A stretch of DNA of 64,000 nucleotides from Ligustrum vulgare. Taxonomy: Eukaryota > Streptophyta > Magnoliopsida > Lamiales > Oleaceae. The notes under the pieces are model-generated. The model searched no databases, was not told the DNA's origin, and saw nothing but the letters and a program-made list of their open reading frames with translations. Below are positions 10,141 through 59,173 of this stretch, one piece after another. The position numbers were made by a program, and so were the translations under genes. The stretch covers positions 17,430,692 through 17,494,691 of the forward strand of contig OY743179.1 in assembly GCA_963555705.1 (NCBI GenBank), read 5' to 3'. How positions within the stretch are numbered: the stretch's first letter is position 1; every line of letters begins with the position of its first letter.

Positions 10141-10308
10141 GCTTACAAAATTGGTAACAAGGCTAAAATTATCAAGATACTATTTACTATTTTGTCCTTA
10201 TTAGGCTATCTGTACATCTATCTGTATAACTATCTGTACGAATAGCATACCCAATCATAAAAAGTTTACTTGTTAGTGATAAATTTATTTTGAAATAATT
10301 TATCAGCT

Positions 10309-10527
10309 GTTGTGAAACTACCATTATAATAATACTAGATATAGAGATAGAGAGAGAGATGCGAAGATGAGAGAATTCTCATTCAATTCAAGTGTGATCA
10401 ATGTTACAAGAAAAAGCTCTATTTATAGGAATTGATAGGGGCAAATATAGTCATTCATACCTATTAAATTATTGTTATAAGTTAGGTAGAAATTAGGTAA
10501 AGTTAGATTAGAGAATAATTTACAACA
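10309..10527 (-). repeat. Element 1, 3' LTR (left copy)
   Basis: The 219-bp LTR has TG...CA ends and matches 27289-27506 over its whole length, with scattered substitutions. A GATAGAGAGAGA microsatellite-like patch sits near its start. Confidence 0.9.
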
Positions 10528-10566
10528 CTCCCCCTTGAATGACTTATTACTCAATAACTCAATTGT

Positions 10567-11280
10567 CTGCCTCATTAAAACCTTGATAAGAAAACCCAGT
10601 GGGATAAAACTTGAGCGAAGGAAAAAGAGTACAGGTGCTCCCCCTGATGTTGGCCATCATTAATCATTGAGTCTAATATCCAAAATGACATCAATGATAA
10701 GTAGTACAAATCATGTACTGAATTTTGAAGTTCTGAAGTGCTGAACTGCTTCAGTGCTGCCTCGTTAAAACCTTGTCAGTAAAACCCAATGGGACAAAAT
10801 CTGAATGAAGGAAAAAGAGTACAGCCGCTGCCTCGTTAAAATCTTGTTAGGAAAACCTAGTAAGACAAAACATGGACGAAGGAAAAAGAGTACTACATGA
10901 TTCTCCCCCTGAAGTGTGCAATCAAGTAATCATGAACCTTTTGAATAATGATATCATCTTTCGTCTGGAATATGTATATATGAAAATCTTCTTGTGTGTA
11001 GCCGATATCATACATTCTTCATAAGATGTCTATGATTTTCTTCATTTGTTGATATCATTCCAGCACAATTTAAAGAGAGAGCTTGTTGTTGAATTATTAC
11101 TTGCAGATAGCTGTGACAGTGTCTCAAAAGCCTTGTTAGGAAAATCCTGTGGGACAAAACCTTAGCGAAGGGAAAAATAGTACATTATTCTCATTGATAT
11201 GCCATAATTGCTGTCTTATTAAAAACCTTGCTAGGAAAACCCTGTAGGACAAAACCTCAACTAAGGGAAAAAGAGTGTAG
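10567..11280 (-). repeat. Five diverged copies of a copia 3'-region repeat
   Basis: A unit of about 65 bp recurs at about 10567-10634, 10757-10823, 10828-10893, 11121-11183 and 11211-11280. Its plus strand begins like CTGCCTCGTTAAAACCTTG and ends GAAGGAAAAAGAGTAC. On the minus strand this is the sequence commonly found between the pol stop and the 3' LTR of Ty1-copia elements, which supports the copia assignment of element 1. The copies are separated by unique sequence, so the array is not a simple tandem. Confidence 0.75.
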
Positions 11281-12230
11281 CGCGTATTTGTTCCCTTCAT
11301 AGGAATATCACAACTATATTAATGCAATCTCAAATCATTTCATCAAACATATAGTTTGTGATGAGCTTTTATAAATAGTTTATAACTCATTTATGATGTC
11401 ATAACTCATTTATGATGTACTGAACATGCTATACCAAGCAATGTTTAGTTAGTTGACTGATTGCATTACTCAAATCTAGAATTGATTCACTTCTGGTGAA
11501 ACTATCAAAATCAAGAATTCACTTCTGATGAATAATTAAATATTCATTTTCAAATTCAATTCTGGTGAATATTCATTTTTGGTGGATAATATAATTTTGC
11601 ATATTAAAAATCAATTGCATGCCCAAATATTCAAATATAATAATAGTACATTCCAATTTCATTTTCAACATATTATATTATGGGGTCATATGTATCATTC
11701 TTCATGTGATTTTATTTTAAGAATCACATTTCATTCTATAATGATACTATTCTGGGCAAATTGAATCTTTCAATGATTTATACATGTATGTTCTTGCACT
11801 TTATAAACAGCAATTTCTGATTTGTAGGAGTATAATCAATCATTGAAATAGATATCAATTTCGACATATAATCTATAATCATTTCGCTTGAAATCCCAAC
11901 GTACCGCGATCAACTGGTATATCAAAGAAAACTCCCAAAGTACCGAGATGAGAATCACACTTTTTGATCTCGCTCATTAGTATATCAAAGAGCTCAAACT
12001 AGTGATCTAGATTATAATCCCATCCACCATATGTCATGCTAGTTCTTTGAAAAATTTAGTGCGCAACGAGTAGTCTTTTACGACTGTGTAATATTTTTCA
12101 TTTGTACAAATAACTACTGACATTACACATTTAAGTGTTTTGGACTTCAGGTCCTATAACAATAATCCCTACATTGGGATTTTTATATTTGGCCAAAGTA
12201 TTATAATTTCAAAAACCTCATTTTCTTAAG
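11281..12230. other. Element 1 interior, non-coding
   Basis: AT-rich, no gene. It includes several copies of a CTTCTGGTGAA-type motif at 11476-11590 and paired near-repeats around 11895-11995 (GTACCG...GTATATCAAAGA), both of the same short-repeat style as the rest of element 1. Confidence 0.5.
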
Positions 12231-12234
12231 AGGG

Positions 12235-13165
12235 TTGTGTGTAGTCGACTTATTTATCGATTCCATTATATGATTCGGACCAGGCATCGAAGGAAAAAGT
12301 CGAGTCATCGGCAATACGACAGTGATCTACGTGCAAAACGGAGTAAGTTTTATGTTGGAATCGAGCCGAGAAGGCGAAAGGATCAAGCCGAGCCGAATAA
12401 ACGAAATTATTTATGCAGAGAAGAAATTACGACCGTAATGAAGATCCTTCACAGCCGTAACTCATATAATCACGGCCGTAACCAACTATCGGGGAAAAAG
12501 GAAGAAGTTCAACAGAACAAGACTTACGGCCGTAAGTCTGAAAGTTACGGCTGTAACTAATGAAGCAGTTTTGGATCCAATAGGCCTTTACGGCCGTAAA
12601 TGCATTCTTCACGGTCGTAACTGAGTAACGGCCAGATTTTCGAGGATTTTTAATTATTTAGTTTCCTTTTTTGGTTTTTAGGTTATTTTCCTAATTTAGT
12701 ATTCTAGTTTAATTAGAATTCTATTTTGAGTAAATTAGTGTTATGTTATTTTGCTTATTTATATTCTTTTCCATGATTGTAAAAAAAGACAGTTTAGTTT
12801 TGAGAATATTAAATTTGAGTTGAGAGAGTTTTCTCCAATTGAAAGGTTAAGGAGTCCCTTTTGTGTTCTTCGAGAACAAATCCAACTTATCAAATATTGC
12901 GAAATATTTGTGGCGTTGAACTTATCGAATATTCGTGAGAATATTTGTGGCGTTTCCAATTATAATCTTATCAAGAAAATTGACGAGTCCTCGTGGTATT
13001 TGGAAAACCTTGGATCTCGATTTCCTATCGTCAATTTTATCTTTCCAGTATTTTAATTTTTGTGTTCTTGTTTATTTTTTGCGTTTGATCTGATCTAGAT
13101 ATTTCCTAAGTTTTAATTGTGTTATTTCCGCGTGTTTGTCGAGATTCCCCGATTGGGATCTCATC
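12235..13165 (+). repeat. LTR-like fragment with ACGGCCGTAA palindromes
   Basis: This patch contrasts with the flanking element 1 sequence. It begins GC-richer, with seven or eight variants of the palindrome TTACGGCCGTAA between 12427 and 12635. It then has T-rich sequence with TTTGGTTTTTAGGTTA near 12670 and ends near GATTGGGATCTCATCA. The plan resembles a gypsy-type LTR or its fragment inserted in element 1. Exact ends and a target duplication were not found. Confidence 0.4.
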
Positions 13166-14130
13166 ATTCCATTTCATGTCAATATAAACATAACATAGAG
13201 AGATCTCTTTGTTTATTCTATCATCAGGTAGTTGAATCTCTCATCATTTAACTATGTCTCTTTTACTCACCATGAGTATTTAGTCTCAAAAGAGATCATT
13301 TCAATTATTCAAGAGATATTTGTTTTTGGAATCGATTGTCATTATGCTTCAGGCATAATTACGCTTTAAGCTTGATTACACTTCATGCGTGTTATTGTTT
13401 AATTTTCCCATAATATTCAAGAATATTGTATTATATCAGTCAGCTAAAAATGTCGTAATACACGTCATTCGTAATTATGGATATAATCACAATCATATAT
13501 CAAGTGCGTATTGTTGGAGTGTATATAGATATCGCACTTCTTTGAAATCATAAAGCTTCACAAGCAAATTTTTATTTCATCGTATTGAAATGTTTGTGTG
13601 TAAAATATTGCTGCATAAGAAATATTTATATTCAAGTTGTTTTCATAGCAAATATTTGGAAACTTTTAATTTGCTAAACCATTAGCAACATAATGCTATT
13701 ATCTCAACTAATTCGTAAAATCATTAATGACTTTAAGATATATTCATGCTAGCATTTATCACTTTGCTCGTAATATCATTATTACTTGAGCAAATAATTT
13801 GTCATTCATTTTCTTAATGAGATAATTAATTTGCTTTTGAGAACAAGCAGCAATGATAACTTGTTAACCTAAACAATCTTCTGGTTCTTTAATGAATGCC
13901 ATTTTGCATTCTCAATAAATTTCATTATTGAATTGGAATCTAACCAATCATGCTAAATTATAGAACTTCTGGTTTAGTAAGATATTTCACTTGTACATAT
14001 GTATGAACTTCTGGTTCAATATAGTATTCATTTCATCAGTTCGTATTTCTGTATAGTACAAATCAGTATAACTTTATTTATTATATCTAAAAAGATGATT
14101 AGACCGAAATCTCAATAAAACGATCATTGT
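13166..14130. other. Element 1 interior, non-coding, upstream of cassette A
   Basis: No gene is present. It contains the recurring ACTTCTGGTT motif (13968, 14008). From about 13990 rightwards it shows patchy similarity to 19540-19800, which is the sequence upstream of the intact cassette in element 2, so the shared unit appears to include upstream DNA. Confidence 0.5.
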
Positions 14131-14258
14131 CCCCTTCTTTTGATTACAAATCTTTCCCTTTTCTTGGTGGAATCACTGACACGCGGAGCCACCACTCTTT
14201 TACGCTTTAAATAATTCATTTAAATAGATTACTTTGGGAGAAGATCAGATCCATCAAA

Positions 14259-14791
14259 ATGGATGTTATATTATCAAATATCCGCAAATACTACTCAAAT
14301 CTTAATGTTTTAAAAAAAATTTACCGAGTTCGACTCTAAAGATTGAGGCTGCTGATGGATCAAGGTATCCCAAAAGATGTTCGTTGGTTGATCGAAGCAA
14401 AAGTTCGATTAGCTGGTGGATTACCAGATTCATTTTCTAAGCACATGTCTGGCTTAGGTAAGAGTACTTTTGCAAAGAAGCGAAAAGCAAAAAGATTGAA
14501 AGGTTATTGCAAATGTGCTCAATGGACATGTAATACCCGTTGTAAGTCAGTAGGATATTCATCCATAAATCGAGATGATAAGATAGACTTCATTAAGGGT
14601 GGCTGAGTAAGGAGTCATTGGATGATATTCGATTGACTCTTGAGACGCACCCTAGTGGGTATGTGCAGCGTGAGCTATTATCTTTATGGGCTAAATTCAT
14701 CAGCGATAAAGAGCGTTATAGTCTCAAAAATATAATAGCAAAAGATCATGTTTGTCAGGCTGTTATAAACAATGATGTTTTGGGTACTTAA
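14259..14791 (+). pseudogene. Broken copy of the Cys-rich NABP-like gene (cassette A)
   Basis: This is the diverged counterpart of the intact gene at 19865-20416. The conserved start (ATG 14259) begins MDVILSNIRKYYS. A GAA-to-TAA change gives a stop at 14337. A one-base deletion in the Lys-Gly-Gly segment causes a frameshift ending at 14604-14606. The remaining C-terminus can be followed in another frame to TAA 14789. The basic region and the Cys-Lys-Cys-Ala-Gln cluster are still readable, though the first Cys has moved by one residue (Tyr-Cys instead of Cys-Tyr). It lies about 310 bp upstream of the broken LOG copy, the same arrangement as cassette B. Confidence 0.8.
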
Positions 14792-15098
14792 CATTGATAC
14801 AAGGTAAATCAGTATAGTATATATGTTTTGACAAAGTATTTTGTATTTTCATTTTTCGCGTATTAACAGATGGTATCTGAGAGATCACTGAAAGATTATC
14901 CATTATGGAGCAAAATATATGCTGTCAGAGACAATATCAAAAGTGGTGTCATTTAGTCAAAAGTAAATAGCAACTTTTTCAAAAGAAGAGCAGTAAATAG
15001 TGAATATTTTCAAGTTTAAAATGTCTGATAATTTCGCAGTTTAAAGCATCCCAAAATAACAATTTCTTGTAAGTTTTTCTTTCCTTATACTCTCAAAG

Positions 15099-16429
15099 AT
15101 GGAAGGACCAAAACTTTGACAGATCAAAACTATCTGTGTATTTTGTGGATCAAAAGTAGGGAAATGTTTTGGGTATTTAGAAGCAGCAGTAGAGATGGCA
15201 AAAAAATCCGATCCGCCCCGTTGATCCGTCGACCCGATCCGATCCGATCCGAAAAAATCCCGATCCGTGGATCGACGGATCGAAATTTTTGTGATCCGCC
15301 CCGATCCGAAAATTCACGGAGCGGATTTGGATCAGGGCTGATCCGATCCGCCCCGATCCGCGATCCGAAATTTTTTTTTAATATAATTTTTTTATCATGT
15401 ATAAAAATCTAATATTATAAATTTTGTAGCAAACTTTAATTTTTGGGAATAACCTGCAATCTTTGCATTTTAAAGAAAACACATTTTTCATGTTCTTCAT
15501 TTGAAGAAAGAATTACAATAAGTGATGGTAAAAAAACTCGATCCGTTGAATCGGCGAATCGGTCTCTATACGTCTCGTTTCAATAAAATAAATAAAATTT
15601 AATAAAAAAATAAATTTTCTAAATTTTTTATAAAAGATTTAATTTAAAATATATTTAAAAAAATTAAAAAAAATAAAAAATAAATATATATATTTTTTTT
15701 GGCGGATCGGTCCACGGATCGGTGGACCGATCCGAACCCGATCCGCCCCGACCCGACCCGAAATTTGACGAATCGCGGGGCGGATCCGGATCGGGCAAAA
15801 AAATCTCGGGGCGGGGCGGGGCGGATCGGGGTCCGATCCGCCCCGTTGCCATCTCTGAGCAGCAGTGGATTTAGGAAAGAAGTTGGGAGAGAAAGCTATC
15901 AATCTAGTATATGGAAGAGGTAGCAGTGGATTGATGGGTTGTGTTTCACAATCCGCTCAAACAGAGAAAGCAAAAGTGATAGGTGTTATACCCGTTCCTT
16001 TAGCTGATATCGCAGGCAAAACACGAGGGCATGAAGTACAGACGTTATCTATCCATGAACGCATAACTTGCATGTTATATGGTTCTGATGCCTTCATTAC
16101 CATGCCTTGAGGTTTTGGTACTTTAGAGGAAATCTTTAATATTACCTCATGGGCTCAATTAGATCTCCATACCAAGCTTATTGAGCTTTTAAATGTTAAC
16201 AATTTCTTTGATGGTTTGCTAACATTTTCTTGATTATGCTGTGGAACAGGGATTTATCTCTCCATTTTCTAGGAGAATCCTTATTTCTGCTCCTACTATC
16301 GAGGAACTGCTGGATAAGTTGCAATCATATATTTCAATACAAGATCCAGCAGGATTAAAGATATGTTGGTCGCAAGGAAGGGGTGCCAAGCGAAAATGGA
16401 GTTCAGTTAATGTAAATTTATCCTTGTGA
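15099..16429 (+). pseudogene. Broken LOG-type phosphoribohydrolase (cassette A)
   Basis: It is homologous to the intact LOG ORF at 20713-21366. Damage is a CGA-to-TGA stop at 15117, a 667-bp MITE inserted at 15191, a GGA-to-TGA stop at 16108 inside the PGGFGTLEE motif and a one-base insertion near 16229. The glycine-rich motif is changed to Tyr-Gly-Arg-Gly-Ser-Ser. The frame after the last shift ends at TGA 16427. Loss of the catalytic motif means no enzyme can be made. Confidence 0.9.
15191..15857. mobile_element. Mutator-like MITE inserted in the LOG pseudogene
   Basis: The terminal inverted repeat is AGAGATGGCAA at the left and TTGCCATCTCT at the right. The 9-bp target duplication AGCAGCAGT is exact (15182-15190 and 15858-15866). 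Both subterminal regions are dense in GATCCG/CGGATC and GGGGCGG, a composition typical of a very common plant MITE class. The 9-bp duplication indicates Mutator-type transposition. There is no coding capacity. Confidence 0.85.
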
Positions 16430-16439
16430 ATCTCCAAAA

Positions 16440-16870
16440 TATTGTGGGTGGTAGAGTACGGGATATTCTTACTCTTGAGACACACCTTTAATATTGATGA
16501 GTATTTGAACTTAATCTTGTGAACCTCAAAAGGATTTGGAGTGGTGGAGTACAGAGTATTCTTACTCTTGAGACACACAAAAAAGATTAGGGGTGGTTGA
16601 GTATGAAGTATTATTACACCTGATACACACCTCTACTTTTGAGGAACATAAATGTTTCCCCCTTTTGTATTTTGCATGTATGACTCGTTATGCTTCTTCA
16701 GGAGCAATAATAATAATTATCATTTCAGTATGTTTAGATGATAATCTTTACTTCTTCTAGAGTAAATATGTACTTCTTCTGGAATACATAAGTGTTTATG
16801 TAAGAACTTTTCCAGATATTTATCATCTAATATTTATCTCATAATACTGATGAGATTATTTTCACATTAG
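16440..16870. other. 3' region of cassette A with repeats
   Basis: Three diverged copies of a 40-60 bp unit follow the LOG stop (about 16446-16487, 16541-16577, 16588-16625). Each has GAGTAC...GTATTCTTACTC and then GACACAC, which can pair as a short stem. The same triple arrangement follows the intact LOG. Beyond it, similarity to element 2 fades by about 16720, and TACTTCTTCTGGA-type element 1 motifs resume. Confidence 0.6.
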
Positions 16871-16875
16871 CTATG

Positions 16876-18944
16876 TGTGATGACCCGAATTTTCGACCAT
16901 TCGAGTGCCACTAAAAGTGACTCATATCATATTATCGAGACTTAAATAGTAATGTAAAATTATTCAAAAGAATAATTAGAATCCCATAATTTAATTTGTG
17001 AATAAAAATAGAACATAATTTTCTTACATAAAGTTCAACATAATTATCTCATCAATCTTAACCACTTTTGCCACTTCCATGTTGACCGCCTCGAACCTTC
17101 AATTATATGAAAATGGTAAATATCGTGGAGTGAGATTTATAAAATCCCAGTAAGTATACCAAGCATAATTTTCTTTTGAAAGCATATGGATCATTTTCAT
17201 AACATAGGATAAGATCGAAATCCTCATAAACATAGAGAGACACAAGAATTTTACCGAACTTAGATGACAAGAATTCTTATGTGTAGCGCTACTAAACTCC
17301 GGTCCCCTTAGCATAATCATAAACATATCATATGGGACCAATAGCAATCTTGTGAGATTGATTTCATAGCAATGATCCAAACATTTTCGTAAAAACATAA
17401 GGTATATCTAATTTTCATAAAAACATACTTACTTTTCTTAAAAATATAAGATATTTTACTTTTCATAAAAACATACTTACTTTTCTTAAAAACATAAGGT
17501 GTATTTACCTTTCATAAAAACATACTTACTTTTCATAAAAACATAAGGTAATACCTTTCATAAAAACATACTTACTTTTCATAAAAACTTAAAGTATATT
17601 TACATTTCATAACAACATACTTAATTTTCATAAAAACATAAGATATACTTACCTTTTAAAAGATTAAAATGAAGTGTAGTAGTAAATGGACCAAAACTTT
17701 CTTGACCACCTTGAATTTCTCTTACTTGTGGATTTTGTCAAGAGGTTGGAAATAAGTGTATATGTGTAGAGTTGTGTGTAAAAGAGATGGGTTTAAATAG
17801 ATGTATAAAGTTGGCATATTGTAAACATAATCATTCAATTCTATTAATTTTAACACATCATTTTCTTAAAGTAAAGCACCATTCATATACTTTTCCATAT
17901 TTATACAAATAATATGCTCTTCATGATTATATATAATGGAGTCTATCAATCATTCATATACTTTTCCATATTTATACAATTATTATGCTCTTCATGATTA
18001 TATATAATGGAGTATATAAATCATTCATATACTTTTCCATATTTATACAAATATTATGCTCTTCATGATTACATATAATGGAGTCTTATCAATCATTCAT
18101 ATACTTTTCCATTTTTATACAAATATTATGCTCTTCATGATTATATATAATGGAGTATATAATTCATTCATATACTTTTCCATATTTATACAAATATTAT
18201 GCTCTTCATGATTACATATAATGGAGTCTATCAACCATTCATATACTTTTTCATATTTATACAATTATTATGCTCTTCATGTTTATATATAATGGAGTAT
18301 ATAATTCATTCATATACTTTTCCATATTTATACAATTATTATGCTCTTCATGTTTATATATAATGGAGTATATAATTCATTCATATACTTTTCCATATTT
18401 ATACAAATATTATGCTCTTCATGATTACATATAATGGAGTCTATCAATCATTCATATACTTTTCCATATTTATACAAATATTATGCTCTTCATGTTTATA
18501 TATAATGGAGTATATAATTCATTCATATACTTTTCCATATTTATACAAATATTATGCTCTTCATGATTACATATAATGGAGTCTATCAACCATTCATATA
18601 CTTTTCCATATTTATTAAATTAAGATTCTCATAATTATTATATATAATGGAACCTCTCATGCTTGCATATATTTTCTTAATTTCAATAATAAAAATAATT
18701 TTTGTATAAATAAATATTGGGATAACATTGAATTAAGTACTTGGACTTAATATACTTTAAATCAAGAGAATGGAGATATTTTTAGAAATTCGGAATTTAA
18801 TTTAAAATCGAACGATCTCGATTATTTCTTGACTTGGCTATACGAATACGTCACGGCGTTACTTAATAAAAATGGGTGAAATAGTAGCGACACGATTTTC
18901 TATTAAAATAATTATTAATCGCGTAAAAATTCTTGATCGCTACA
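16876..18944 (-). repeat. Element 2, 3' LTR (left copy)
   Basis: The 2069-bp LTR contains two minisatellites: a roughly 33-bp unit (CATAAAAACATACTTACTTT type) at about 17400-17650, and a roughly 72-bp unit with ATTCATATACTTTTCC and TGCTCTTCATG at about 17880-18610. A short frame at 17099-17398 on the minus strand is shared with the other LTR but looks non-genic. Confidence 0.92.
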
Positions 18945-18985
18945 AACTTACCCCCTTAAAATAATTTCGTCCTCGAAATAAAACT
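18945..18985 (-). promoter_or_regulatory. Polypurine tract of element 2
   Basis: On the minus strand it reads ATTTTAAGGGGGTAAG directly before the 3' LTR. This is the site that primes plus-strand DNA synthesis in LTR elements. The adjacent TTTCGAGGACGAAA relic marks where a gypsy polyprotein once ended. Confidence 0.75.
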
Positions 18986-19800
18986 TACTTGATCTTATGA
19001 TTTCTGAACACTTAATCAGAATCTCTTCTCTTCTTTCTCTTAGTAATCTCATCATTATAATATCTAACCCACTGGACTTTTACTAAATGCATCTCTTTGT
19101 TTTCTTAAGAACATGTATTTTTCTTATCAATAATAGACATATGTGTCTACTCATAAATTCTAACTCAAAATGAAAATTTCCAATCGTATGTGATATTTCA
19201 TCATATCTTGTAGTACTCATGTAACCTGTCACTTATCATAGTATCATGTAACCTCAAATATTCGTATTAATATCTCTAAAATTTCAATAAATCTTTACTA
19301 ACATATCATACCATAATAATTTGTCATTTCTTCTTATCACCAAATATCCCAAAATAATTAAAACGATTACCTGAATATTCTCTATGTAATATATCCAAAC
19401 ATGTTATTCACATATCAACATAATCATCAGTTTATCTTTCCAATATTTGTAACCCAAAATTTATGCAAAATTCAATAAACAAATATCTCCCAAATAATTA
19501 AAATTCTTAACTCAAATATCATAACATTTCCCGTAAGGTATTCCTTTCACTTGTACAAACTTATTAATCCTGATTCAATACAGTCCTTATTTCACTTTCA
19601 CGTATCCCCGTATTATTTCTATACCTTGATTATTATATCAAAATATCAGTACCCAAAAATCCAAGAAAATATTCCATATCTCAAATCCCGTCATCATCAA
19701 ATCTTCCTTTTATCAAGAAAGTAAACGGCGCATAAACTCTTGTTACCTCTTTTCCATTATTCTATTCCGCGCTTTCTTGCTGGAATCAATATCACGCGGA
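18986..19800. other. Element 2 interior, non-coding, upstream of cassette B
   Basis: AT-rich, no open frame of note. From about 19540 it resembles the sequence upstream of cassette A, so part of this stretch probably belongs to the mobile gene cassette rather than to the gypsy ancestor. Confidence 0.5.
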
Positions 19801-19818
19801 TTCCCTCCGATCCTTAAT

Positions 19819-19830
19819 GCTTTTAAATAG
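19819..19830 (+). promoter_or_regulatory. TATA-like box of the NABP-like gene
   Basis: GCTTTTAAATAG lies about 35 bp before the conserved ATG at 19865. The same box recurs before LOG at 20628, and a relative (GCTTTAAATAA) lies before the broken copy at about 14204-14214. This suggests each cassette gene has its own core promoter. Function is inferred. Confidence 0.4.
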
Positions 19831-19864
19831 TTCATGCTGGGAAGAGGTTAGATCCATCAAAAAC

Positions 19865-20416
19865 ATGGATATCATTCTTACAAACATTCGCAAGTATTAT
19901 TCCAGTCTTCCAATGAATGATCTGAGGAAAATTTATCGAATAAGACTCGAAAGATTGAGGTTGCTGATGGCTCATGGTGTTTCAGAAGATGTTCGCTGGT
20001 TGATCGAAGCAAAGGTTCGACTATCTGGTGAATTACCTATGACATTTCCAAAGCACATGCCTGGTTTAGGCAAAAGCACCTTCGCAAAGAAACGAAGAGC
20101 AAAAAGGCTGAATGGTTGCTACAAATGTGCTCGTTGGAACTGTGATACTCGTTGCAAAACAGTAGGATATTCTTCTACTAATCGGGATGATAAAATCAAA
20201 TTCATAAAGGGTGGACTGAGTAAGGAGTCTTTGGATGATATTCGACTGACTCTTGAGACGCACCCAAGTGGTTATGTGCAACATGAACTTCTCTCCTTAT
20301 ACGCTCAGTTTAACGAGGACAAAAATCGTTATAGTCTCCAAAATATAATAGCAAAAGATCCTGTTTGCCAGTCTGTTTTACAAAATGAGGCTTCTGGCAG
20401 TTCAACAATGATATAA
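19865..20416 (+). CDS. Cys-rich basic protein resembling viral nucleic-acid-binding proteins (NABP)
   Basis: A 183-residue intact ORF. An in-frame ATG 16 codons upstream (19817) exists, but ATG 19865 is conserved in cassette A and follows the TATA-like box at the right distance. Residues 69-81 are a basic patch, Gly-Lys-Ser-Thr-Phe-Ala then Lys/Arg-rich. A Cys cluster follows: Cys85, Cys88, Cys93, Cys97. Basic Ser-Thr-x-Ala-Lys-Lys-Arg-Arg-Ala-Lys directly before a compact Cys cluster, then a Gly-Tyr-Ser segment, is the pattern of the 3'-proximal Cys-rich RNA-binding proteins of carlavirus-type viruses (Viral_NABP family). The rest is helical and charged. A role in nucleic-acid binding is inferred. 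It could instead be a plant lineage protein with convergent motifs. It lies antisense within element 2, 296 bp upstream of LOG. Confidence 0.75.
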   Translation: MDIILTNIRKYYSSLPMNDLRKIYRIRLERLRLLMAHGVSEDVRWLIEAKVRLSGELPMTFPKHMPGLGKSTFAKKRRAKRLNGCYKCARWNCDTRCKTVGYSSTNRDDKIKFIKGGLSKESLDDIRLTLETHPSGYVQHELLSLYAQFNEDKNRYSLQNIIAKDPVCQSVLQNEASGSSTMI

Positions 20417-20627
20417 GGTAAATCTCTTGATACACATTTAAAATATTTTGCTGTTTTCTTTCACGCGTTTTGGAAATAAAATATATTTTCCTTTCTCGAG
20501 TTTTGATAAAGCTGGAAATAAATCACCGAAAGGTGATATCTTTGGTAAAACAGTCAAAAGTTGGCCGATTTTGTCAAAAGTAAATCTTTACTTTTTCATA
20601 ATCAATCAAAAACAGTAAATTTTTCCG

Positions 20628-20639
20628 GCTTTAAATAGT
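20628..20639 (+). promoter_or_regulatory. TATA-like box upstream of LOG
   Basis: GCTTTAAATAGT lies about 75 bp before ATG 20713. It matches the box before the first cassette gene (19819) almost base for base, in an intergenic region of otherwise unrelated sequence. The stretch between it and the ATG looks like a 5' leader (CATCCCAAAATCACATC) and is conserved in cassette A. Confidence 0.4.
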
Positions 20640-20712
20640 CAAACATATTTCATAGTTCAGGCATCCCAAAATCACATCTTCTTCGTAAGTTTTCTCTTCT
20701 ATACTATCAAAG

Positions 20713-21366
20713 ATGGAAGCACCAAAACTTCGACAGATCAAAACTATTTGTGTATTTTGTGGATCAAAAGTGGGGAAAGGCTTCAGTTATCTAGAAGCGG
20801 CCGTAGATCTTGGAAAGAAACTGGGGGAAAAAGGTATCACTCTTGTGTATGGGGGTGGTAGCAGTGGTCTAATGGGTTGTGTTTCCCAATCTGCTCTTGC
20901 AGAGAAATCAAAAGTAATCGGTGTCATACCTGTCCCTTTGGTAGATGTTGCAGGCAAAACACGAGGGCATGAAGTTCAAACATTATCCATCCATGAACGC
21001 ATAACTTGTATGCTATATGGTTCTGATGCCTTTATAGCCCTGCCCGGAGGTTTTGGTACCTTAGAAGAAATCTTTAACATTACCTCGTGGGCTCAACTAG
21101 ATCTCCATACTAAGCCTATTGGGCTTCTGAATGTTAACAATTTCTTTGATGGTTTGTTAACCTTTCTTGATTATGCTGTGGAACAGGGATTCATCTCTCC
21201 ATTTTCCAGAAGGCTCCTTATTTCTGCTCCTACTATTGATGAACTACTGGATAAGCTGCAGTCATATATCTCAATACAAGATTCAGCAGGGGTTAAGATA
21301 GATTGGTCGCAAGGAAGGGGAATCAAGCGAAAATGGAGTCCGGTTAATGTAAACTTAACTTTATGA
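20713..21366 (+). CDS. LOG: LOG-type cytokinin riboside 5'-monophosphate phosphoribohydrolase, intronless
   Basis: 217 residues, intact. LOG enzymes release active free-base cytokinins from their ribotides in one step in the cytosol. The Rossmann-type fold is visible: N-terminal strand with Cys-Val-Phe-Cys-Gly-Ser (residues 13-18), glycine loop YGGGSSGLMG (46-55) and the signature PGGFGTLEE (111-119), with Glu118 and Glu119. Arg96 in His-Glu-Arg is kept, but the usual following Lys is Ile97. Length matches plant LOGs. The C-terminal tail is basic (Lys-Arg-Lys-Trp). Plant LOG genes usually have several introns, and none is seen here, so a reverse-transcribed origin is inferred. It lies inside element 2 on the opposite strand, after the NABP-like gene. 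Whether it is expressed is unknown. Confidence 0.93.
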   Translation: MEAPKLRQIKTICVFCGSKVGKGFSYLEAAVDLGKKLGEKGITLVYGGGSSGLMGCVSQSALAEKSKVIGVIPVPLVDVAGKTRGHEVQTLSIHERITCMLYGSDAFIALPGGFGTLEEIFNITSWAQLDLHTKPIGLLNVNNFFDGLLTFLDYAVEQGFISPFSRRLLISAPTIDELLDKLQSYISIQDSAGVKIDWSQGRGIKRKWSPVNVNLTL

Positions 21367-21371
21367 ATCTT

Positions 21372-21720
21372 AGAATAGGTGGGGGTAGAGTACGGAGTAT
21401 TCTTACTCTCGAGACACCCCTCTAATTTCCTAGGATTTCCTTAATGTTTAAATCTTGTGTGTACCTCAAAGGTTCCAGGTGGTAGATTACGGAGTATTCT
21501 TACTCTCGAAACACACCTCTTTGAAGGTTTCTTTATTTCCTCAAAAGGTCAGAGGTGGTAGGATACGGCTACTCCGGAAACACATCTCTCAATTTGAGGA
21601 ATTTCCCATGTTGCTTTCTTTTGCTTTTGCGTGTTTCATGTATTTCTTTTCCAGTGTGACTCTTTGTATGTTCTCCTTATGAGAAAATAATAAAATCTCT
21701 GCTATCATCTACTAAATCTC
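21372..21720 (+). repeat. Triple repeat after LOG and likely poly(A) region
   Basis: Three copies of a unit with GGTGG-TAGA-TACGGAGTATTC, TTACTCTCGA and GACACACCTCT occur at about 21378-21421, 21477-21521 and 21552-21590. The half-sites GAGTA and TACTC can pair. The same set follows the cassette A LOG, so it is an original cassette component. An AATAAAA near 21689-21695 may act as polyadenylation signal. Confidence 0.6.
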
Positions 21721-23475
21721 GTTTGTGATGTAAATGAACTTGCATGTCTAACCTTAATTCCTTTAGTGGATGCTTATCATATCATGCTCTTAATTCCAAA
21801 TGATAAAATTCTGGACAAAGTCTCCCTTGTAATTTGGACTTATCCCAAACCATAAGCATACTTCATAACTCACAATAATAAATAACTCCACATTTGATCA
21901 CAACGATCTAAAAATATTGAAAACGATTCCAACACTTCAATATCATCAAAAAAATATCTCATAATTCAATTCATAATTCCTCAACATAACAATTTCAAAT
22001 CATATTTTTCAATATCACAATATCACTTCCTTCCATACCTTAATTGGCTCAAAAGATTACTCATACTTATATTTATAAGTCATAAATCATATTCCCAAAA
22101 TTTAATCACAAGGCCAAAGTTCATAATAAATTTCTCTTCAATATAGAGGCATAATTCACTTACTCAACATAATATCCATTACTTAATTCCCAATAACCAA
22201 ATCTTTAAATCTCTAACTTCATAATGCTTCTCATAAAAGTCTCATTAAAACCACTTATAATCTTAACATCTCATAAAACTTCATAAAATTGGCTCGCTAT
22301 TTCTCATTAAATCTAAATGATAGATAATCTGAACATATTTCTAATCATTTCTGTTGACTTCTCATACTTAGTGCCATGTCTAAAATCAATTATGCAAAGT
22401 CCATTTAAGGTTCATCATTTCTAAACTCAAGGACAACAATTATTTTGAAAATCATTCTTAAGTCATATTATTCCCATTAGGCTCAACACCCGTTCTCTTT
22501 CTTTCTTTTCTTTCCGAATTTTTTTTTTTTTCAGAATTGAAACTTGAAGAGTGGTACCAATAATCATCCACAGTTTTTCCTTGCTTTTAAGCAAAGGTAG
22601 TGATAAAGGGATAAATTATTGAACCGAAAATTGAAACTTGAAGAGGAAGTACTAATAACCATCCACAGTTTTTCCCTTGTTTTTACACAAAGGTAGTGAT
22701 AAAGGGATAAATTATTGTACGAATTCATTATTAATTTTGTTTGTTTAATATATTATTCCATATATTTTGGGCAAAAGTTACAACCCAACTTAATTTCTAA
22801 TTGAGTCAATCTTACTAAGCTTAATATGCACCAAAATTCATATAAATATCCTCTCTGTCTCATGATTCTACATTGAAAAGAATAAAAAAAATTGAGTCTT
22901 CTATCAATTTATATCATACTTGACATGTATATTATGTGTAACACATAAAGATTCATAACATATGAATATTTCATACTTAACATGCTTCAATATAATCATA
23001 AATGCCATGTAATTGCTATTATACATAACATACCTGGTTCGAGGAGTCAAAACGTGGAAGGTGGCGTAGCGGATTGATGAGTCAAAATTTTCATAATTAA
23101 ATAATGGTCTATTTCTTAGAAAAAATTCATTAACCATTTTTGAATCTTTACATGAGATTTGGCCCAATTGATACATTATCAATACATGTAGTAATTTACT
23201 TAGCCCAATTAAAATTTTCATACATGATTGAGTCCAATTTAATATAATACCAAATAAAATAATTTGGTTATTCAAAATAAAATTTGCATAAATGATTAGA
23301 CCAAAATCTGATTCATAATAACAATTTGCTAATGATTTACTTAAATAATAATTTAGACAACTAAGAAAATTTTTCAAATACATAAAGTTAGGTCTAAAGT
23401 GATAAGAGACTTAAAAGTATATCCATTCATATTTCTCCATCACGACAAAATCAATAGTTAATTTTTTTTTTTTTT
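21721..23475. other. Element 2 interior, non-coding
   Basis: AT-rich sequence without retroviral or host genes. It contains a direct tandem duplication of about 97 bp (about 22534-22630 and 22631-22727), marked by GAAACTTGAAGAG and AAAGGTAGTGATAAAGGGA in both halves. Open frames on the minus strand here have no recognisable character. Confidence 0.6.
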
Positions 23476-23479
23476 TTTG

Positions 23480-23605
23480 AATAGTAAACGCACTGTTCAC
23501 CGAACAATTTTTTTTTAAAATGATGAACAGTGACCGTCACGAGTACTGTTCATGTGAACAGTGTCTCGGTTACTGTTCACCGAACAGTAACCTACTGCTT
23601 TACTG
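23480..23605. repeat. Cluster of ACTGTTCA/TGAACAGT motifs
   Basis: Seven or so copies of the octamer TGAACAGT or its reverse complement lie in about 120 bp near the 5' end of element 2, several in head-to-head pairs such as ACTGTTCATGTGAACAGT. They can form alternative short hairpins. The function is unknown. Confidence 0.6.
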
Positions 23606-23747
23606 TACATGCATAAACATTTTTTTCCAAGAGATGTAAAATATGAAGAAAATTAATTACTTTAACTGAAATTAAAAATAGATTAATTGCAATTTCTTGT
23701 AGAAATATTTTGAAATGATTTAAGGAGTCTACAGAAAAGTATAACTT

Positions 23748-23761
23748 GCTCTGATACCAAC
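23748..23761 (-). promoter_or_regulatory. Primer binding site of element 2 (tRNA-Met)
   Basis: On the minus strand it reads GTTGGTATCAGAGC directly after the 5' LTR. This is complementary to the 3' end of initiator tRNA-Met and fixes the element's orientation. Confidence 0.9.
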
Positions 23762-25832
23762 TGTGATGACCCGAATTTTCGACCATTCGAGTGCCACTAA
23801 AAGTGACTCATATCATATTATCGAGACTTAAATAGTAATGTAAAATTATTCAAAAGAATAATTAGAATCCCATAATTTAATTTGTGAATAAAAATAGAAC
23901 ATAATTTTCTTACATAAAGTTCAACATAATTATCTCATCAATCTTAACCACTTTTGCCACTTCCATGTTGACCGCCTCGAACCTTCAATTATCTGAAAAT
24001 GGTAAATATCGTGGAGTGAGATTTATAAAATCCCAGTAAGTATACCAAGCATAATTTTCTTTTGAAAGCATATGGATCATTTTCATAACATAGGATAGGA
24101 TCGAAATCCTCATAAACATAGAGAGACACAAGAATTTTACCGAACTTAGATGACAAGAATTCTTATGTGTAGCGCTACTAAACTCCGGTCCCCTTAGCAT
24201 AATCATAAACATATCATATGGGACCAATAGCAATCTTGTGAGATTGATTTCATAGCAATGATCCAAACATTTTCGTAAAAACATAAGGTATATCTAATTT
24301 TCATAAAAACATACTTACTTTTCTTAAAAATATAAGATATTTTACTTTTCATAAAAACATACTTACTTTTCTTAAAAACATAAGGTGTATTTACCTTTCA
24401 TAAAAACATACTTACTTTTCATAAAAACATAAGGTAATACCTTTCATAAAAACATACTTACTTTTCATAAAAACTTAAAGTATATTTACATTTCATAACA
24501 ACATACTTAATTTTCATAAAAACATAAGATATACTTACCTTTTAAAAGATTAAAATGAAGTGTAGTAGTAAATGGACCAAAACTTTCTTGACCACCTTGA
24601 ATTTCTCTTACTTGTGGATTTTGTCAAGAGGTTGGAAATAAGTGTATATGTGTAGAGTTGTGTGTGAAAGAGATGGGTTTAAATAGATGTATAAAGTTGG
24701 CATATTGTAAACATAATCATTCAATTCTATTAATTTTAATACATCATTTTCTTAAAGTAAAGCACCATTCATATATACTTTTCCATATTTATACAAATAA
24801 TATGCTCTTCATGATTATATATAATGGAGTCTATCAATCATTCATATACTTTTCCATATTTATACAATTATTATGCTCTTCATGATTATATATAATGGAG
24901 TATATAAATCATTCATATACTTTTCCATATTTATACAAATATTATGCTCTTCATGATTACATATAATGGAGTCTTATCAATCATTCATATACTTTTCCAT
25001 ATTTATACAAATATTATGCTCTTCATGATTATATATAATGGAGTATATAATTCATTCATATACTTTTCCATATTTATACAAATATTATGCTCTTCATGAT
25101 TACATATAATGGAGTCTATCAATCATTCATATACTTTTTCATATTTATACAATTATTATGCTCTTCATGTTTATATATAATGGAGTATATAATTCATTCA
25201 TATACTTTTCCATATTTATACAATTATTATGCTCTTCATGTTTATATATAATGGAGTATATAATTCATTCATATACTTTTCCATATTTATACAAATATTA
25301 TGCTCTTCATGATTACATATAATGGAGTCTATCAATCATTCATATACTTTTCCATATTTATACAAATATTATGCTCTTCATGTTTATATATAATGGAGTA
25401 TATAATTCATTCATATACTTTTCCATATTTATACAAATATTATGCTCTTCATGATTACATATAATGGAGTCTATCAACCATTCATATACTTTTCCATATT
25501 TATTAAATTAAGATTCTCATAATTATTATATATAATGGAACCTCTCATGCTTGCATATATTTTCTTAATTTCAATAATAAAAATAATTTTTGTATAAATA
25601 AATATTGGGATAACATTGAATTAAGTACTTGGACTTAATATACTTTAAATCAAGAGAATGGAGATATTTTTAGAAATTCGGAATTTAATTTAAAATCGAA
25701 CGATCTCGATTATTTCTTGACTTGGCTATACGAATACGTCACGGAGTTACTTAATAAAAATGGGTGAAATAGTAGCGACACGATTTTCTATTAAAATAAT
25801 TATTAATCGCGTAAAAATTCTTGGTCGCTACA
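23762..25832 (-). repeat. Element 2, 5' LTR (right copy)
   Basis: The 2071-bp LTR is nearly identical to 16876-18944, including both minisatellites (about 24295-24540 and 24765-25500). Short frames inside (23985-24284 minus, 24658-24885 plus) are duplicates or shadows without coding character. Confidence 0.92.
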
Positions 25833-25837
25833 CTATG

Positions 25838-26131
25838 TCCATGCTATCATGTGATATTATCTTATCATATATCAACATTCTCTTGTTGGATAATTCATTT
25901 TTATCTATCTTTTCAATACAGATAATGGTAACTTCTGGTACCGTTTGATAAAATATTTTTATCAACAGTCACCAACTTTTTGGTAATGATAACTTCTGGT
26001 ATCATTTGATAAAATATTATCTAACTTTAGTAGTGATAACTTCTGGTACCGTTAAATGAAATATCAAATAACAATAATATCGTATATATATTAACAATAA
26101 TAATACTGAGGTTATACCACCACGTATATAT
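25838..26131. other. Element 1 interior, non-coding, with ACTTCTGGT motifs
   Basis: Three copies of the element 1 motif ACTTCTGGT occur at about 25931, 25992 and 26039, each in a longer repeated context (GATAACTTCTGGTACCGTT). There is no gene. Confidence 0.6.
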
Positions 26132-26139
26132 ATTGATAA

Positions 26140-26466
26140 CAGTGTTCTAAAAAGCGTGATGAAGCGGGGAGCCCGAGTGTCAAGCTTTTCAAGCTTAAGC
26201 GGGAGTATGCGTTAAAAAACGTTAAAAAGTGTTTTTCAATTCCTATATACAAAATTTAAATTTTACACATACTTTAACCCCTAAAAAAAATTTGAAAAAA
26301 AAATAAAAAAATCATAAGCGCGCTTTGGCTAGCTTCGGGTCGTGCTTACTCGCGGATAATGCGCTCTTTTTTCCTGCTTTTTAGATAAAAGATTTTCAGA
26401 CGCTTTTTCCACGCTTTTCGCTGTTTTGACGCGGCTGAGGCGAGCGTTGCGCGTTTTAGAACACTG
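26140..26466. mobile_element. hAT-like MITE
   Basis: Terminal inverted repeats CAGTGTTCTAAAA and TTTTAGAACACTG flank 327 bp. The 8-bp target duplication ATTGATAA/GTTGATAA has one change. CAGTG-type ends with 8-bp duplications indicate hAT mobilisation. A partial copy in inverted orientation is at 28610-28761. The frame at 26329-26661 on the minus strand is not a gene. Confidence 0.75.
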
Positions 26467-26474
26467 GTTGATAA

Positions 26475-27264
26475 CAACCTCTAATATGTTAGAATTAATC
26501 AACAATTGAGGTGTTTTTGAAATAATATAAAATTTGAATATATGTAAAATATTCCATGTATTCAATTGATAGACCGACCATATAGGCGGTGTCAACATAA
26601 TGAAATAATTACCTTTTATGAGTGAGTGAGTCATATCTTCAAATCCAGTCAAAGTATTCATAATAGTCCAATCTGTTACGATAATGAGTCATGTCCAGTT
26701 AAGGTATAAATCCAGTCCATAATAACTCAATCCATCACGGTATGACAATAATTATATTACTTATACCTTGTTTAAACTCTTTAATTTATTGATCACAGAT
26801 TAATGTTAATTAGTTGTGAATATTGTTAATGCTAATCATATAATTAATATGCATAATTATAATGAAACGATTTAAAATCTTACCACTATACCTACCAAGT
26901 TCGTGGACTTTTGTTAGTTTCCACCAAGTTAGTGTTAGACACCACGATCACTACTGCAGTCATGCCTTTAATCTGAATTTTCTAGATCAAAGGTTGTGAT
27001 ACTTTTCTCTTCTCATTTTTTTTCATCGAAGTATTCATCTTCAAGATCAATTTCGCAATTCCAGTAGTCCTAGCAACAATATGGGACCAAAAATAATTGC
27101 AGTAGTGGAGTGGAGTTCTCGGCCGTGATTGGTAAAAGAAGAATTTTTCTAAATATGGGATTTAATAGAGTGGTTCACGTTGATTAATAATAATCAGGTT
27201 TCTGATACAGAGGTTCATCATTTAGATGCAACAATAGAGCATACTCCCGTCATATTACTCAATA
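26475..27264. other. Element 1 leader region, non-coding
   Basis: In element 1 orientation this is the region just downstream of the primer site, where gag would be expected. No gag-like frame is found. Two near-repeats with CCAGTC...TAATAACTCAATCC style sequence occur at 26660-26740. Confidence 0.5.
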
Positions 27265-27288
27265 GGCTAGAGACTCGTGCTGATAACG
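27265..27288 (-). promoter_or_regulatory. Primer binding site of element 1, half tRNA-Ile type
   Basis: The plus strand ends CTCGTGCTGATAACG immediately before the LTR. This resembles nucleotides around 16-40 of plant tRNA-Ile(AAU), in which the sequence through the anticodon is CGTGCTAATAACG. The single difference in the anticodon is G for A, which is what copying inosine-34 would give. The geometry (primer 3' end in the anticodon stem) is that of copia elements primed by a cleaved tRNA 5' half. The tRNA sequence is recalled, not looked up. Confidence 0.6.
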
Positions 27289-27506
27289 TGTTGTGAAACT
27301 ACCATAATAATAATACTAGATATAGAGATAGAGAGAGATGAGAAGAGGAGAGAATTCTCATTCAATTTAAGTGTGATCAATGTTACAAGAAAAAACCCTA
27401 TTTATAGAAATTGATAGGGGCAAATATAGTCATTCATACCTATTAAATTATTGTTATAAGTTAGGTAGAAATTAGGTAAAGTTAGATTAGGGAATAATTT
27501 ACAACA
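27289..27506 (-). repeat. Element 1, 5' LTR (right copy)
   Basis: The 218-bp LTR pairs with 10309-10527. It has TG...CA ends and is followed by TCAGT, the partner of TCAGC at the other end. Confidence 0.9.
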
Positions 27507-27778
27507 TCAGTCAAATTTTAATTAATAGTGTTTTATTGTGAAATAAAGTTTTACTATTTTATATTCTAAGAAAGCATGCTCAAGAATGTACGATGTTCAA
27601 TACTTGAAAGTTGAAGTCATTTGGGGAACAATTTATTACAATCGATATATGGATTTTAAGTATTCATAATTGATTTTGTATCATTACACGATGTCAAATG
27701 AAGCATTTGATGATAGATGTTTGGAAGAGATACGACTCAAGTTATGACCAGTTAAAGCCCGGAAACAATCGTTCAACT

Positions 27779-58368: not shown

Positions 58369-59171
58369 TGTTGAGATTGATCAAAAATTATGGAATAAAG
58401 AATTTTTATTTGACAAGAAACGAAAAAGTGGTCAAATTAGATTGAGATTATTTTCTTTATATAATACCAATTGAAAAAGGAATAAAATATTTTTGGTATT
58501 ATTATATAAGGAAAATAATTAAGATATTTCAATTATAATTAAGCAAGTTTTTGACGTAATTTATGGTTATATATTCATTGGACTCTGCAATTGAAGTTAA
58601 GGTGAAAAAAAAAGAGGAGAAAGAATTATTGTGTGCTGTGAGAGAGAGAGTATAGAAAGAAAGAAAATTGTATTTGTTGTTCTTTCTTAAAAAAAAAAAA
58701 GGTGTAGCCCACACCCTGAGGGCCCGAACCGACCACGCCCAAGGCCATTGGTTCGGGAAGGTAAATCCAGGTTATGCCTCCAAGGAGCCAGGGTGGAAGG
58801 ACTTATGGTAAGCATGAGAAACGCTCAATAACTCCCGCTTGCCACAAGGCCAATTCCACCTTGCGGGGAATCGAACCAAGCACACAGCTGCGCTGAGCAC
58901 TTACCACCCATCCCCTTTGCCACTTGGAGATGTGCCCTGGGGGCGTATTTGTTGTTCTTTCTTTGTGTTAGGAGAAGTTGTGAAGGTGAGAAAAATATTG
59001 TAACGAGTGATTTATTTTTCTTACCAATAAAAGTGTTCTTCTCCCGTGGTTGTCGACGGTCAGTTGAGCCACGTTAAATTATTTGTTTTCTCTTTGTTTT
59101 TTCAATTATTTTGTATTTTTATTTTTGCTGCGTTTGGTTGATTTGGGGTGGGAAAGTGAATTTTCCCAACA
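58369..59171 (+). repeat. Copia element 5' LTR (with SINE insertion)
   Basis: It matches 60646-61188 except for the 275 bp made of the SINE and its duplicated target. Confidence 0.92.
58689..58944 (-). mobile_element. Au-type tRNA-derived SINE
   Basis: 256 bp, flanked by an exact 19-bp target duplication GTATTTGTTGTTCTTTCTT (58670-58688 and 58945-58963). On the minus strand it has a pol III A-box-like AGTGGCAAAGGG near the start, a B box GGTTCGATTCC (complement of 58866-58876) and ends in a T run. These are features of Au SINEs of flowering plants. The duplicated target is single-copy in the other LTR, which shows the SINE inserted after the copia element did. Confidence 0.9.
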
Positions 59172-59173
59172 GC

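What the first reader, a model, noticed from the sequence alone, without database searches (positions are those of the whole stretch)
14259..21366. The same two-gene cassette (viral NABP-like protein + LOG) rides in two different LTR retroelements
Cassette A (14259-16429) is in the interior of element 1, which has a copia-like primer site and 3' repeats. Cassette B (19865-21366) is in element 2, which has gypsy-like PPT context and a tRNA-Met primer site. Both have the same gene order, orientation (antisense to the carrier), spacing of about 300 bp and repeated 3' region. Homology runs from about 13990/19540 to 16720/21720. Two unrelated carriers holding one gene unit suggests a cassette that moves between retroelements or was captured more than once.
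Basis: partly seen in the sequence, partly recalled or inferred. Interest (0 to 1): 0.88.

Follow-up and report, generated by a model that had tools for sequence, protein, structure and literature searches.

The report
Retrotransposons sharing a virus–hormone gene pair
Two unrelated jumping elements in this plant DNA each carry the same pair of genes, one like a plant-virus RNA-binding protein and one like an enzyme that activates a growth hormone, and in other plants the same pair sits inside a third kind of element, which suggests that the pair has been kept and perhaps passed between elements because it helps them.

Summary
This plant DNA has two copies of one unit: an NABP-like zinc-finger gene, about 300 bp, then a LOG-like gene. 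They lie in two LTR elements without convincing similarity outside the unit: E1 (220/218-bp LTRs, half-tRNA primer site of the copia/Bianca kind) and E2 (2.07-kb LTRs, tRNA-Met primer site), E2 nested in E1. Both units are antisense to their carriers; no gag-pol was found in either. Copy B is open; copy A is broken and holds a hAT-like insertion. A and B differ as under purifying selection (dN/dS 0.17 and 0.09). New here: gene models of Citrus, Primulina and Henckelia run integrase–NABP–LOG on one strand, and a 3.3-kb contig has gypsy integrase followed by NABP. So the pair also serves as an accessory module behind pol of an Athila-like gypsy lineage. LOG-like ORFs in gypsy elements are in print; my searches found no report of the NABP partner or of other carriers. 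Likeliest role (inferred): a silencing- or transcription-modulating protein plus cytokinin activation. The host genome could not be searched, so movement between carriers is likely, not proven.

The parts
10303..10307 (.). E1 target-site duplication, left (TCAGC)
10308..10527 (-). E1 3' LTR
   Evidence: 95.5% to 27289-27506
10528..10536 (-). E1 polypurine tract (AAGGGGGAG on minus strand)
13961..16730 (+). Cassette A, region homologous to cassette B (approximate borders)
14259..14791 (+). NABP-like gene, copy A, broken
   Evidence: ORF pieces; tblastn; codon comparison
15099..16429 (+). LOG-like gene, copy A, broken
15190..15857 (.). hAT-like insertion in LOG copy A, duplication AGCAGCAG at 15182-15189 and 15858-15865
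16436..16645 (+). 3' repeats of cassette A (motif TACTCTTGAGACACACC)
16871..16875 (.). E2 target-site duplication, left (CTATG)
16876..18944 (-). E2 3' LTR
   Evidence: 99.5% to 23762-25832
18951..18957 (-). E2 polypurine tract (AAGGGGG on minus strand)
19523..21739 (+). Cassette B, region homologous to cassette A (approximate borders)
19865..20416 (+). NABP-like gene, copy B, open (the listed ORF starts at 19817; the ATG shared with relatives is at 19865)
20713..21366 (+). LOG-like gene, copy B, open, no intron
21381..21589 (+). 3' repeats of cassette B
23748..23759 (-). E2 primer-binding site TGGTATCAGAGC (tRNA-Met)
23762..25832 (-). E2 5' LTR
25833..25837 (.). E2 target-site duplication, right (CTATG)
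27274..27288 (-). E1 primer-binding site CGTTATCAGCACGAG
27289..27506 (-). E1 5' LTR
27507..27511 (.). E1 target-site duplication, right (TCAGT)

Best explanation
NABP and LOG form one accessory module that lies behind pol, on the sense strand, in an Athila-like Ty3/gypsy lineage of eudicots. In the lineage of this window a pol-less copy of the module, with its own leader, spacer and 3' repeat region, became cargo of non-autonomous LTR elements. It sits antisense in a copia/Bianca-type element (E1) and in a tRNA-Met-primed, probably gypsy-type element (E2). The carriers move with replication proteins made by other elements. Antisense placement would keep the module's own promoter and poly(A) signals from cutting the carrier's genomic RNA. 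Proposed working, inferred: NABP, a basic zinc-finger protein related to betaflexivirus NABPs, binds nucleic acid and blunts silencing or reprogrammes transcription in the host cell; LOG releases active cytokinin and favours dividing, meristem-like cells; together they raise the chance of reaching the germ line. Shown: anatomy, nesting, homology, the pol-NABP-LOG order elsewhere, co-inheritance, low dN/dS between the two copies. Inferred: the direction of transfer, the reason for antisense, the function of both proteins.
For: Two LTR elements with their own LTRs, TSDs, primer sites and polypurine tracts; E2 young (8 differences in 2069 aligned LTR bases), E1 older (8 in 218). Carriers without convincing similarity outside the unit. 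A motif of E1, ACTTCTGGT (chosen by eye, one mismatch allowed, + strand), lies on both sides of cassette A: 10 in 5.6 kb of E1 interior against 4 in the other 58 kb. Contig L001: integrase ORF 194-1594, then NABP ORF 1787-2347, same strand. Of 49 long gene models with NABP, BLAST found a LOG part in 12, and in all 12 it follows NABP (8 Citrus, 3 Primulina, 1 Henckelia). In six of them a Pfam integrase domain precedes both (P0260, P0261, P0283, P0284, P0285, P0289). NABP and LOG hits share contigs of equal length and source at 8723 and 4511 bp (shift control from 3 kb up: mean 0.0025, maximum 1) and at 1524 bp (control from 1.4 kb up: mean 0.20, maximum 2). Distances co-vary: Mantel r 0.83 over 17 pairs, 0 of 2000 permutations; 0.51 over 8 representatives, 55 of 2000. 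A against B: NABP dN/dS 0.17 (0.10-0.28), LOG 0.094 (0.05-0.15), dS 0.82 and 0.63. LOG signature PGGxGTxxE in 110 of 121 and its Arg in 114 of 121 LOG proteins; CX2CX4CX3C in 109 of 121 NABPs (window copy plus the 120 listed hits each). Structure search of the NABP model among viral proteins: no match at E <= 0.001, but 24 of ranks 1-27 are proteins of viruses that I know as betaflexiviruses, mostly called silencing suppressors or nucleic-acid-binding, the other 3 unnamed. Virus relatives suppress silencing or act as a transcription factor that causes hyperplasia (passages of PMC3689765; PMC12172455).
Against: No second copy of E1 or E2 was seen, so joint movement of carrier and cargo is not shown. 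The pair is not always a pair: 37 of 49 long models showed no LOG part, and L001 has none in the 983 bases after NABP. L001's flanks show no clear similarity to the cassette's non-coding parts, so the Athila-like origin rests on the genes alone. Five Citrus models that I read (P0258, P0260, P0261, P0267, P0273) have GDL(A/T)TLEA in place of GGxGTxxE, so LOG may be inactive in that lineage; Orobanche P0021 and P0022 have PGGYDTLNE. The tRNA-Met primer site of E2 is used by most copia groups too, so it does not make E2 gypsy. The structure model is weak (mean pLDDT 66.9). No expression or enzyme data.
Confidence: 0.6

Rival explanations
1. Nested relics: two degraded pieces of Athila-like elements (NABP-LOG ends) happened to insert, antisense, into E1 and E2 before or after these moved, and never served as cargo.
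For: Nested insertion is common in plant genomes; this window shows E2 in E1 and a hAT-like element in LOG-A. The unit has an Athila-like home.
Against: No gypsy pol trace of that lineage was found beside either unit, nor its TTGGGGGG-type tract near them. A and B share their non-coding borders, so the truncation would have to be alike twice. LOG-B and NABP-B are open inside an element whose LTRs differ by 0.4%.
Confidence: 0.25
2. Ordinary gene transduction: each carrier took up the pair from a host-genome copy, with no function for the element.
For: Gene capture by plant LTR elements is documented (PMC7264820, passages).
Against: Low dN/dS between A and B, the same gene pair in rosids and asterids, and a LOG clade apart from Arabidopsis LOG3 and LOG8 (few host LOGs in the tree) argue for long maintenance in elements.
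Confidence: 0.1
3. The NABP is not viral in origin: betaflexiviruses took it from plant retroelements, or both share an older source. (Compatible with the main reading.)
For: 413 NABP relatives at E <= 0.001 in the protein search, 120 of them listed; the organism names shown are all eudicots.
Against: No tree with viral sequences was made; direction untested.
Confidence: 0.35

Closest known systems
Athila-lineage Ty3/gypsy elements with extra ORFs behind pol (Steinbauerova et al. 2011; LOG/YgdH domain in Citrus and Populus gypsy elements, PMC9289625)
   Same: LOG-domain ORF in gypsy elements of Citrus and Populus (passage). From recall of the 2011 abstract (paper not held): Athila extra ORFs lie in the 3' region and two Athila-like elements have LOGL4 similarity.
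   Different: Here the unit is pol-less and antisense in two other kinds of LTR element; the NABP partner is not mentioned in the passages I saw.
Antisense extra ORFs of Retand, Grande, RIRE2 (PMC11963269, PMC7264820)
   Same: Antisense genes inside LTR elements, suggested to bind nucleic acid.
   Different: Those described lie between pol and the 3' LTR of gypsy elements, most of them with gag-pol, and encode TRP28, SMC and other domains; the terms cytokinin, lysine decarboxylase and nucleic acid binding do not occur in the main text of either paper.
Betaflexivirus NABP / cysteine-rich proteins
   Same: Pfam Viral_NABP and Carla_C4 above cut-off; basic stretch followed by a Cys finger.
   Different: Mostly about 182 aa (183 in copy B), while viral matches at ranks 1-27 are 62-157 aa; finger CX2CX4CX3C, against CX2CX9CX4C reported for potato virus H.
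Plant LOG cytokinin-activating enzymes
   Same: Nearly full-length match to Arabidopsis At2g37210 (E 3.8e-58) with PGGxGTxxE and the Arg kept.
   Different: No intron, in a separate clade in my tree; the Lys after the Arg is Met, Ile or Leu in 111 of 121.

Membership tests
LTR retrotransposon (E1, E2) | paired LTRs, TSD, PBS, PPT | tested here: met
   TSD of E1 matches in 4 of 5 bases
Autonomous LTR retrotransposon (E1, E2) | gag-pol domains | tested here: not met
   no gag-pol Pfam domain in minus-strand frames of 10528-14000, 21740-23761 and 25833-27288, and no tblastn hit of Athila-like pol models in E1 or E2; the rest of the interiors and the plus-strand frames were not scanned for domains beyond single ORFs
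Ty1/copia Bianca lineage (E1) | PBS complementary to edited half-tRNA-Ile | tested here: inconclusive
   PBS is CGTTATCAGCACGAG; the rule is from passages of PMC6317226; the tRNA-Ile letters are recalled, and there is no pol to test
Ty3/gypsy (E2) | gypsy-type pol order | not testable with these tools
   no pol; assignment rests on a recalled polypurine context and long LTRs; the tRNA-Met site also fits most copia groups
Athila-like Ty3/gypsy (L001 and gene models) | gypsy pol without chromodomain, extra ORF 3' of pol | tested here: inconclusive
   L001: rve and H2C2 domains, no chromodomain hit, NABP ORF 3' of pol; models; the lineage name is by recall
Betaflexivirus NABP family (Pfam PF05515/PF01623) | curated score cut-off | tested here: met
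   33.3 against 23 and 23.0 against 20.9 bits
Betaflexivirus NABP family | finger spacing as in the virus (CX2CX9CX4C in PVH) | tested here: not met
   CX2CX4CX3C in 109 of 121, one virus
LOG phosphoribohydrolase | PGGxGTxxE and catalytic Arg | tested here: met
   window copy B
LOG phosphoribohydrolase | cytokinin nucleotide hydrolysis | not testable with these tools
   needs an enzyme assay

The most novel reading that the evidence does not exclude
A host-manipulation module, a virus-type silencing or transcription modulator plus a cytokinin-activating enzyme, has been kept under selection in plant retrotransposons for tens of millions of years (from dS 0.6-0.8 by a recalled substitution rate, and its presence in rosids and asterids) and passed between unrelated LTR elements, whose success then depends on accessory rather than replication genes. 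NABP may also recognise an RNA motif that recurs in its own coding sequence and in the 3' repeats.
Probability: 0.35. Interest if true: 0.9.

Novelty: new variant of a known kind. Interest (0 to 1): 0.72.

Why it matters
If true, plant retrotransposons carry a transferable accessory kit comparable to retroviral accessory genes, one part of which makes an active plant hormone. It would link retroelement biology to RNA-virus silencing suppressors and open a test of whether elements act on the hormone state of the cell. In practice, several proteins named LOGL10 in Diospyros and Populus (P0128, P0170, P0196, P0218) rank with these LOGs, so surveys of cytokinin gene families may be counting retroelement genes; of these, P0128 and P0170 were placed on the tree, inside the retroelement-type clade.

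Tried and rejected
Considered and set aside: (1) E1 as a diverged E2: no convincing similarity outside the unit. (2) A hidden Athila-like element around each unit: no pol found. (3) Shared flanks derived from the L001-type element: no better than shuffles in 11 of 12 comparisons, the twelfth at 7 of 200. (4) A conserved RNA hairpin in the 3' repeats: pairing is good (90.4% of cells, 20 of 500 shuffles reach it) but covariation is no better than shuffles (257 of 500 and 86 of 500); of 8 single folds, two have z below -2 (copy A coding motif and L001) and six do not. Synonymous conservation of the coding motif between B and L001 is weak (12 of 14 against 52 of 92 identical codons, p 0.04, segment chosen after the fact). 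(6) Searches that gave nothing: IMG/VR with the NABP alignment and with two primer or polypurine patterns; plasmids; tRNA scan. (38 stretches for a 15-mer in viral DNA) looked like chance matches from the list alone and was not followed. Six equal lengths with equal source were found; three are on contigs too short for both genes (873, 905, 1018 bp) and were dropped, leaving 8723, 4511 and 1524.

Results against the reading: 37 of 49 long models and L001 show NABP without LOG; Citrus LOGs have lost the catalytic signature; the 8-representative Mantel test is much weaker than the full one, and several nearest partners differ between the two genes; many tree forks are open, several rows are partial, and Citrus P0267 stands apart from the other Citrus rows in the NABP tree. 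Primulina P0283 was left out of the LOG tree and the Mantel test because its LOG part is about 60 residues; P0288 and P0290 were in neither tree. For the trees I used 48 NABP rows and 47 LOG rows, chosen by me from the proteins plus three typed LOGs. LOGs other than retroelement-type ones are few (two Arabidopsis, one bacterial, and three Xanthoceras rows of unknown standing), so a single origin of the retroelement LOGs is not tested.
Full report
What is there. At 10303-27511 lies an LTR element, E1, with a second element, E2, inserted in it. E2 (16876-25832, 8957 bp) has LTRs of 2069 and 2071 bp that differ at 8 of 2069 aligned positions, a 5-bp duplication CTATG on both sides, a tRNA-Met primer site TGGTATCAGAGC and an AAGGGGG polypurine tract, reading on the minus strand. 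E1 (about 8.2 kb without E2) has LTRs of 220 and 218 bp differing at 8 of 218 aligned positions, ends TG...CA, flanks TCAGC/TCAGT, primer site CGTTATCAGCACGAG and polypurine tract AAGGGGGAG, also on the minus strand. A survey of plant LTR elements says that Bianca elements (Ty1/copia) had primer sites for edited half-tRNA-Ile (PMC6317226, passages); E1's site fits the tRNA-Ile anticodon arm as I recall it. E2 as gypsy rests on a recalled polypurine context; its tRNA-Met site is also that of most copia groups. No gag-pol domain was found in the frames searched.

The cassettes. On the plus strand, antisense to the carrier, each element holds NABP then LOG, 307 bp apart in A and 296 bp in B. B is open. 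A has single-base gaps, three stops in B's frame and a 668-bp hAT-like insertion in LOG. The two units are alike in the leader, the spacer and the 3' region as well as in the genes, whereas the carriers show no convincing similarity elsewhere (best 37.4 bits over 35 bp on opposite strands; 30 shuffles reached 33.7). E1's ACTTCTGGT motif, chosen by eye, flanks cassette A on both sides. No third copy and no Athila-like pol was found in E1 or E2 by tblastn at 1e-3.

Selection. Between A and B, NABP has dS 0.82 and dN/dS 0.17 (bootstrap 0.10-0.28) and LOG dS 0.63 and dN/dS 0.094 (0.05-0.15), over 179 of 183 and 216 of 217 comparable codons, those with stops left out. If part of A's change came after it broke, the earlier constraint was stronger (inference). 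This is one pair of copies.

Relatives. A protein search with NABP-B found 413 relatives at E <= 0.001, 120 listed; the organism names shown are eudicots (Orobanche, Populus, Acer, Xanthoceras). The search with LOG-B listed 120 of 7235; one is 92% identical and the others listed are 63% or less. GTDB contigs gave one locus, L001, a 3330-bp plant-like contig filed in a bacterial genome bin: gypsy integrase ORF, then NABP, same strand, after a pyrimidine-rich TGCAG; no LOG in the 983 bases that follow. A search for long gene models holding NABP gave 49; their Pfam lists include reverse transcriptase, RNase H, integrase, gag and protease. BLAST found a LOG part in 12 of the 49, each time after NABP: eight Citrus, three Primulina, one Henckelia. 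In six of these a Pfam integrase domain precedes both (P0260, P0261, P0283-P0285, P0289; NABP of P0285 by BLAST only, NABP of P0260 and P0261 just under Pfam's cut-off). P0267 and P0273 have retroelement-like sequence before NABP by eye but no Pfam pol domain at 0.001; P0282, P0288 and P0290 were not scanned again or read. In P0258 NABP and LOG come first and a protease-like part follows; I read it as two neighbouring elements, which is inference. Shorter Orobanche models P0021, P0022, P0026 and P0027 also hold NABP then LOG. 37 of 49 long models showed no LOG part; whether LOG is missing there or lies in another model is not known.

One unit. Two pairs of NABP and LOG hits lie on contigs of the same length and source above 3 kb (8723 and 4511 bp; shift control mean 0.0025, maximum 1), and a third on 1524 bp (control mean 0.20, maximum 2, from 1.4 kb up). 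Equal length and source suggests, but does not prove, the same contig. Trees (quick, many open forks) put the window near Orobanche for both genes, in the LOG tree together with a Diospyros group; group the Citrus rows for both, P0267 excepted for NABP; pair Primulina P0285 with contig 1524 for both; and put contig 4511 with Populus for both. Distances of the two genes correlate. Shared descent of host plants would also produce this, so it shows co-inheritance, not transfer.

What the proteins are. NABP passes Pfam's cut-offs for betaflexivirus NABPs. Its weak model recalls betaflexivirus proteins at 24 of ranks 1-27 (three unnamed), none at E <= 0.001 (virus families by recall). Its finger spacing CX2CX4CX3C (109 of 121) is not that of the virus looked up. 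LOG-B keeps the catalytic signature and aligns with Arabidopsis At2g37210 over residues 8-202 without an intron, as expected of a copy made from RNA (that host LOG genes have introns is recalled). The potato virus H protein suppresses local silencing, the potato virus M one local and systemic silencing, and that of chrysanthemum virus B is reported to act as a transcription factor causing hyperplasia (PMC3689765, passages). LOG makes free cytokinin, which promotes division (established knowledge). A joint role in keeping a cell permissive and dividing is my inference. Citrus copies without the signature show that LOG activity may not be needed everywhere.

What is known. LOG domains in gypsy elements of Citrus and Populus are in print (PMC9289625, passages, citing Steinbauerova et al. 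2011, which I could not read). Antisense ORFs in LTR elements are well known (PMC11963269, PMC7264820; passages). The listings of ten literature searches showed no report of the NABP partner in retroelements or of the pair in other LTR types; I opened passages of six papers only, and the library lacks most subscription journals.

Verdict. The carriers are different, and a third home exists. Whether the unit moves between carriers as a cassette needs the host genome, which I could not reach in 20 tries.

Noticed in passing
14635-14651, 20248-20264, 16470-16486, 16563-16579, 16615-16631, 21404-21420, 21501-21517: The motif TACTCTTGAGACACACC occurs 7 times (up to 3 mismatches), all in the two cassettes on the plus strand, 2 in NABP coding sequence and 5 in the 3' repeats; 0.09 expected. 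A possible RNA element; the hairpin is not supported by covariation. In L001 the matching outer stem reads GGATG/CATCC against GGGTG/CACCC here, one compensating change in three sequences.
   Followed up: partly
17880-18675 and 24766-25563: E2's LTRs hold an array of about 71-bp repeats and a second array with period about 49 bp (17384-17661 and its copy in the other LTR).
   Followed up: no
5917-7113: Distant similarity (27%) to gypsy-type pol (P0244, residues 6-161 and 241-422) in an A-rich stretch of the first 10 kb; five single ORFs of that stretch have no Pfam hit. Perhaps an old pararetrovirus or gypsy relic.
   Followed up: partly
32380-33423: CACTA-type transposase piece (Transpos_assoc, Transposase_21).
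   Followed up: no
59111-60632: Copia gag and Pol beta-barrel domains, with repeats at 58367-58688/60644-60980 and 58945-59171/60962-61188.
   Followed up: no
L001: A plant-type retroelement contig is filed in a GTDB bacterial bin (Candidatus Nomurabacteria, DAIEQH010000041.1), probably contamination; its NABP is nearly the same as that of a Melia azedarach gene model (P0250).
   Followed up: partly
P0258, P0260, P0261, P0267, P0273 (Citrus gene models): LOG part with GDL(A/T)TLEA instead of GGxGTxxE; the last position is Ala where the solved chain 5zbk also has Ala and 5zbj has Glu: probably inactive enzyme kept as a protein.
   Followed up: partly
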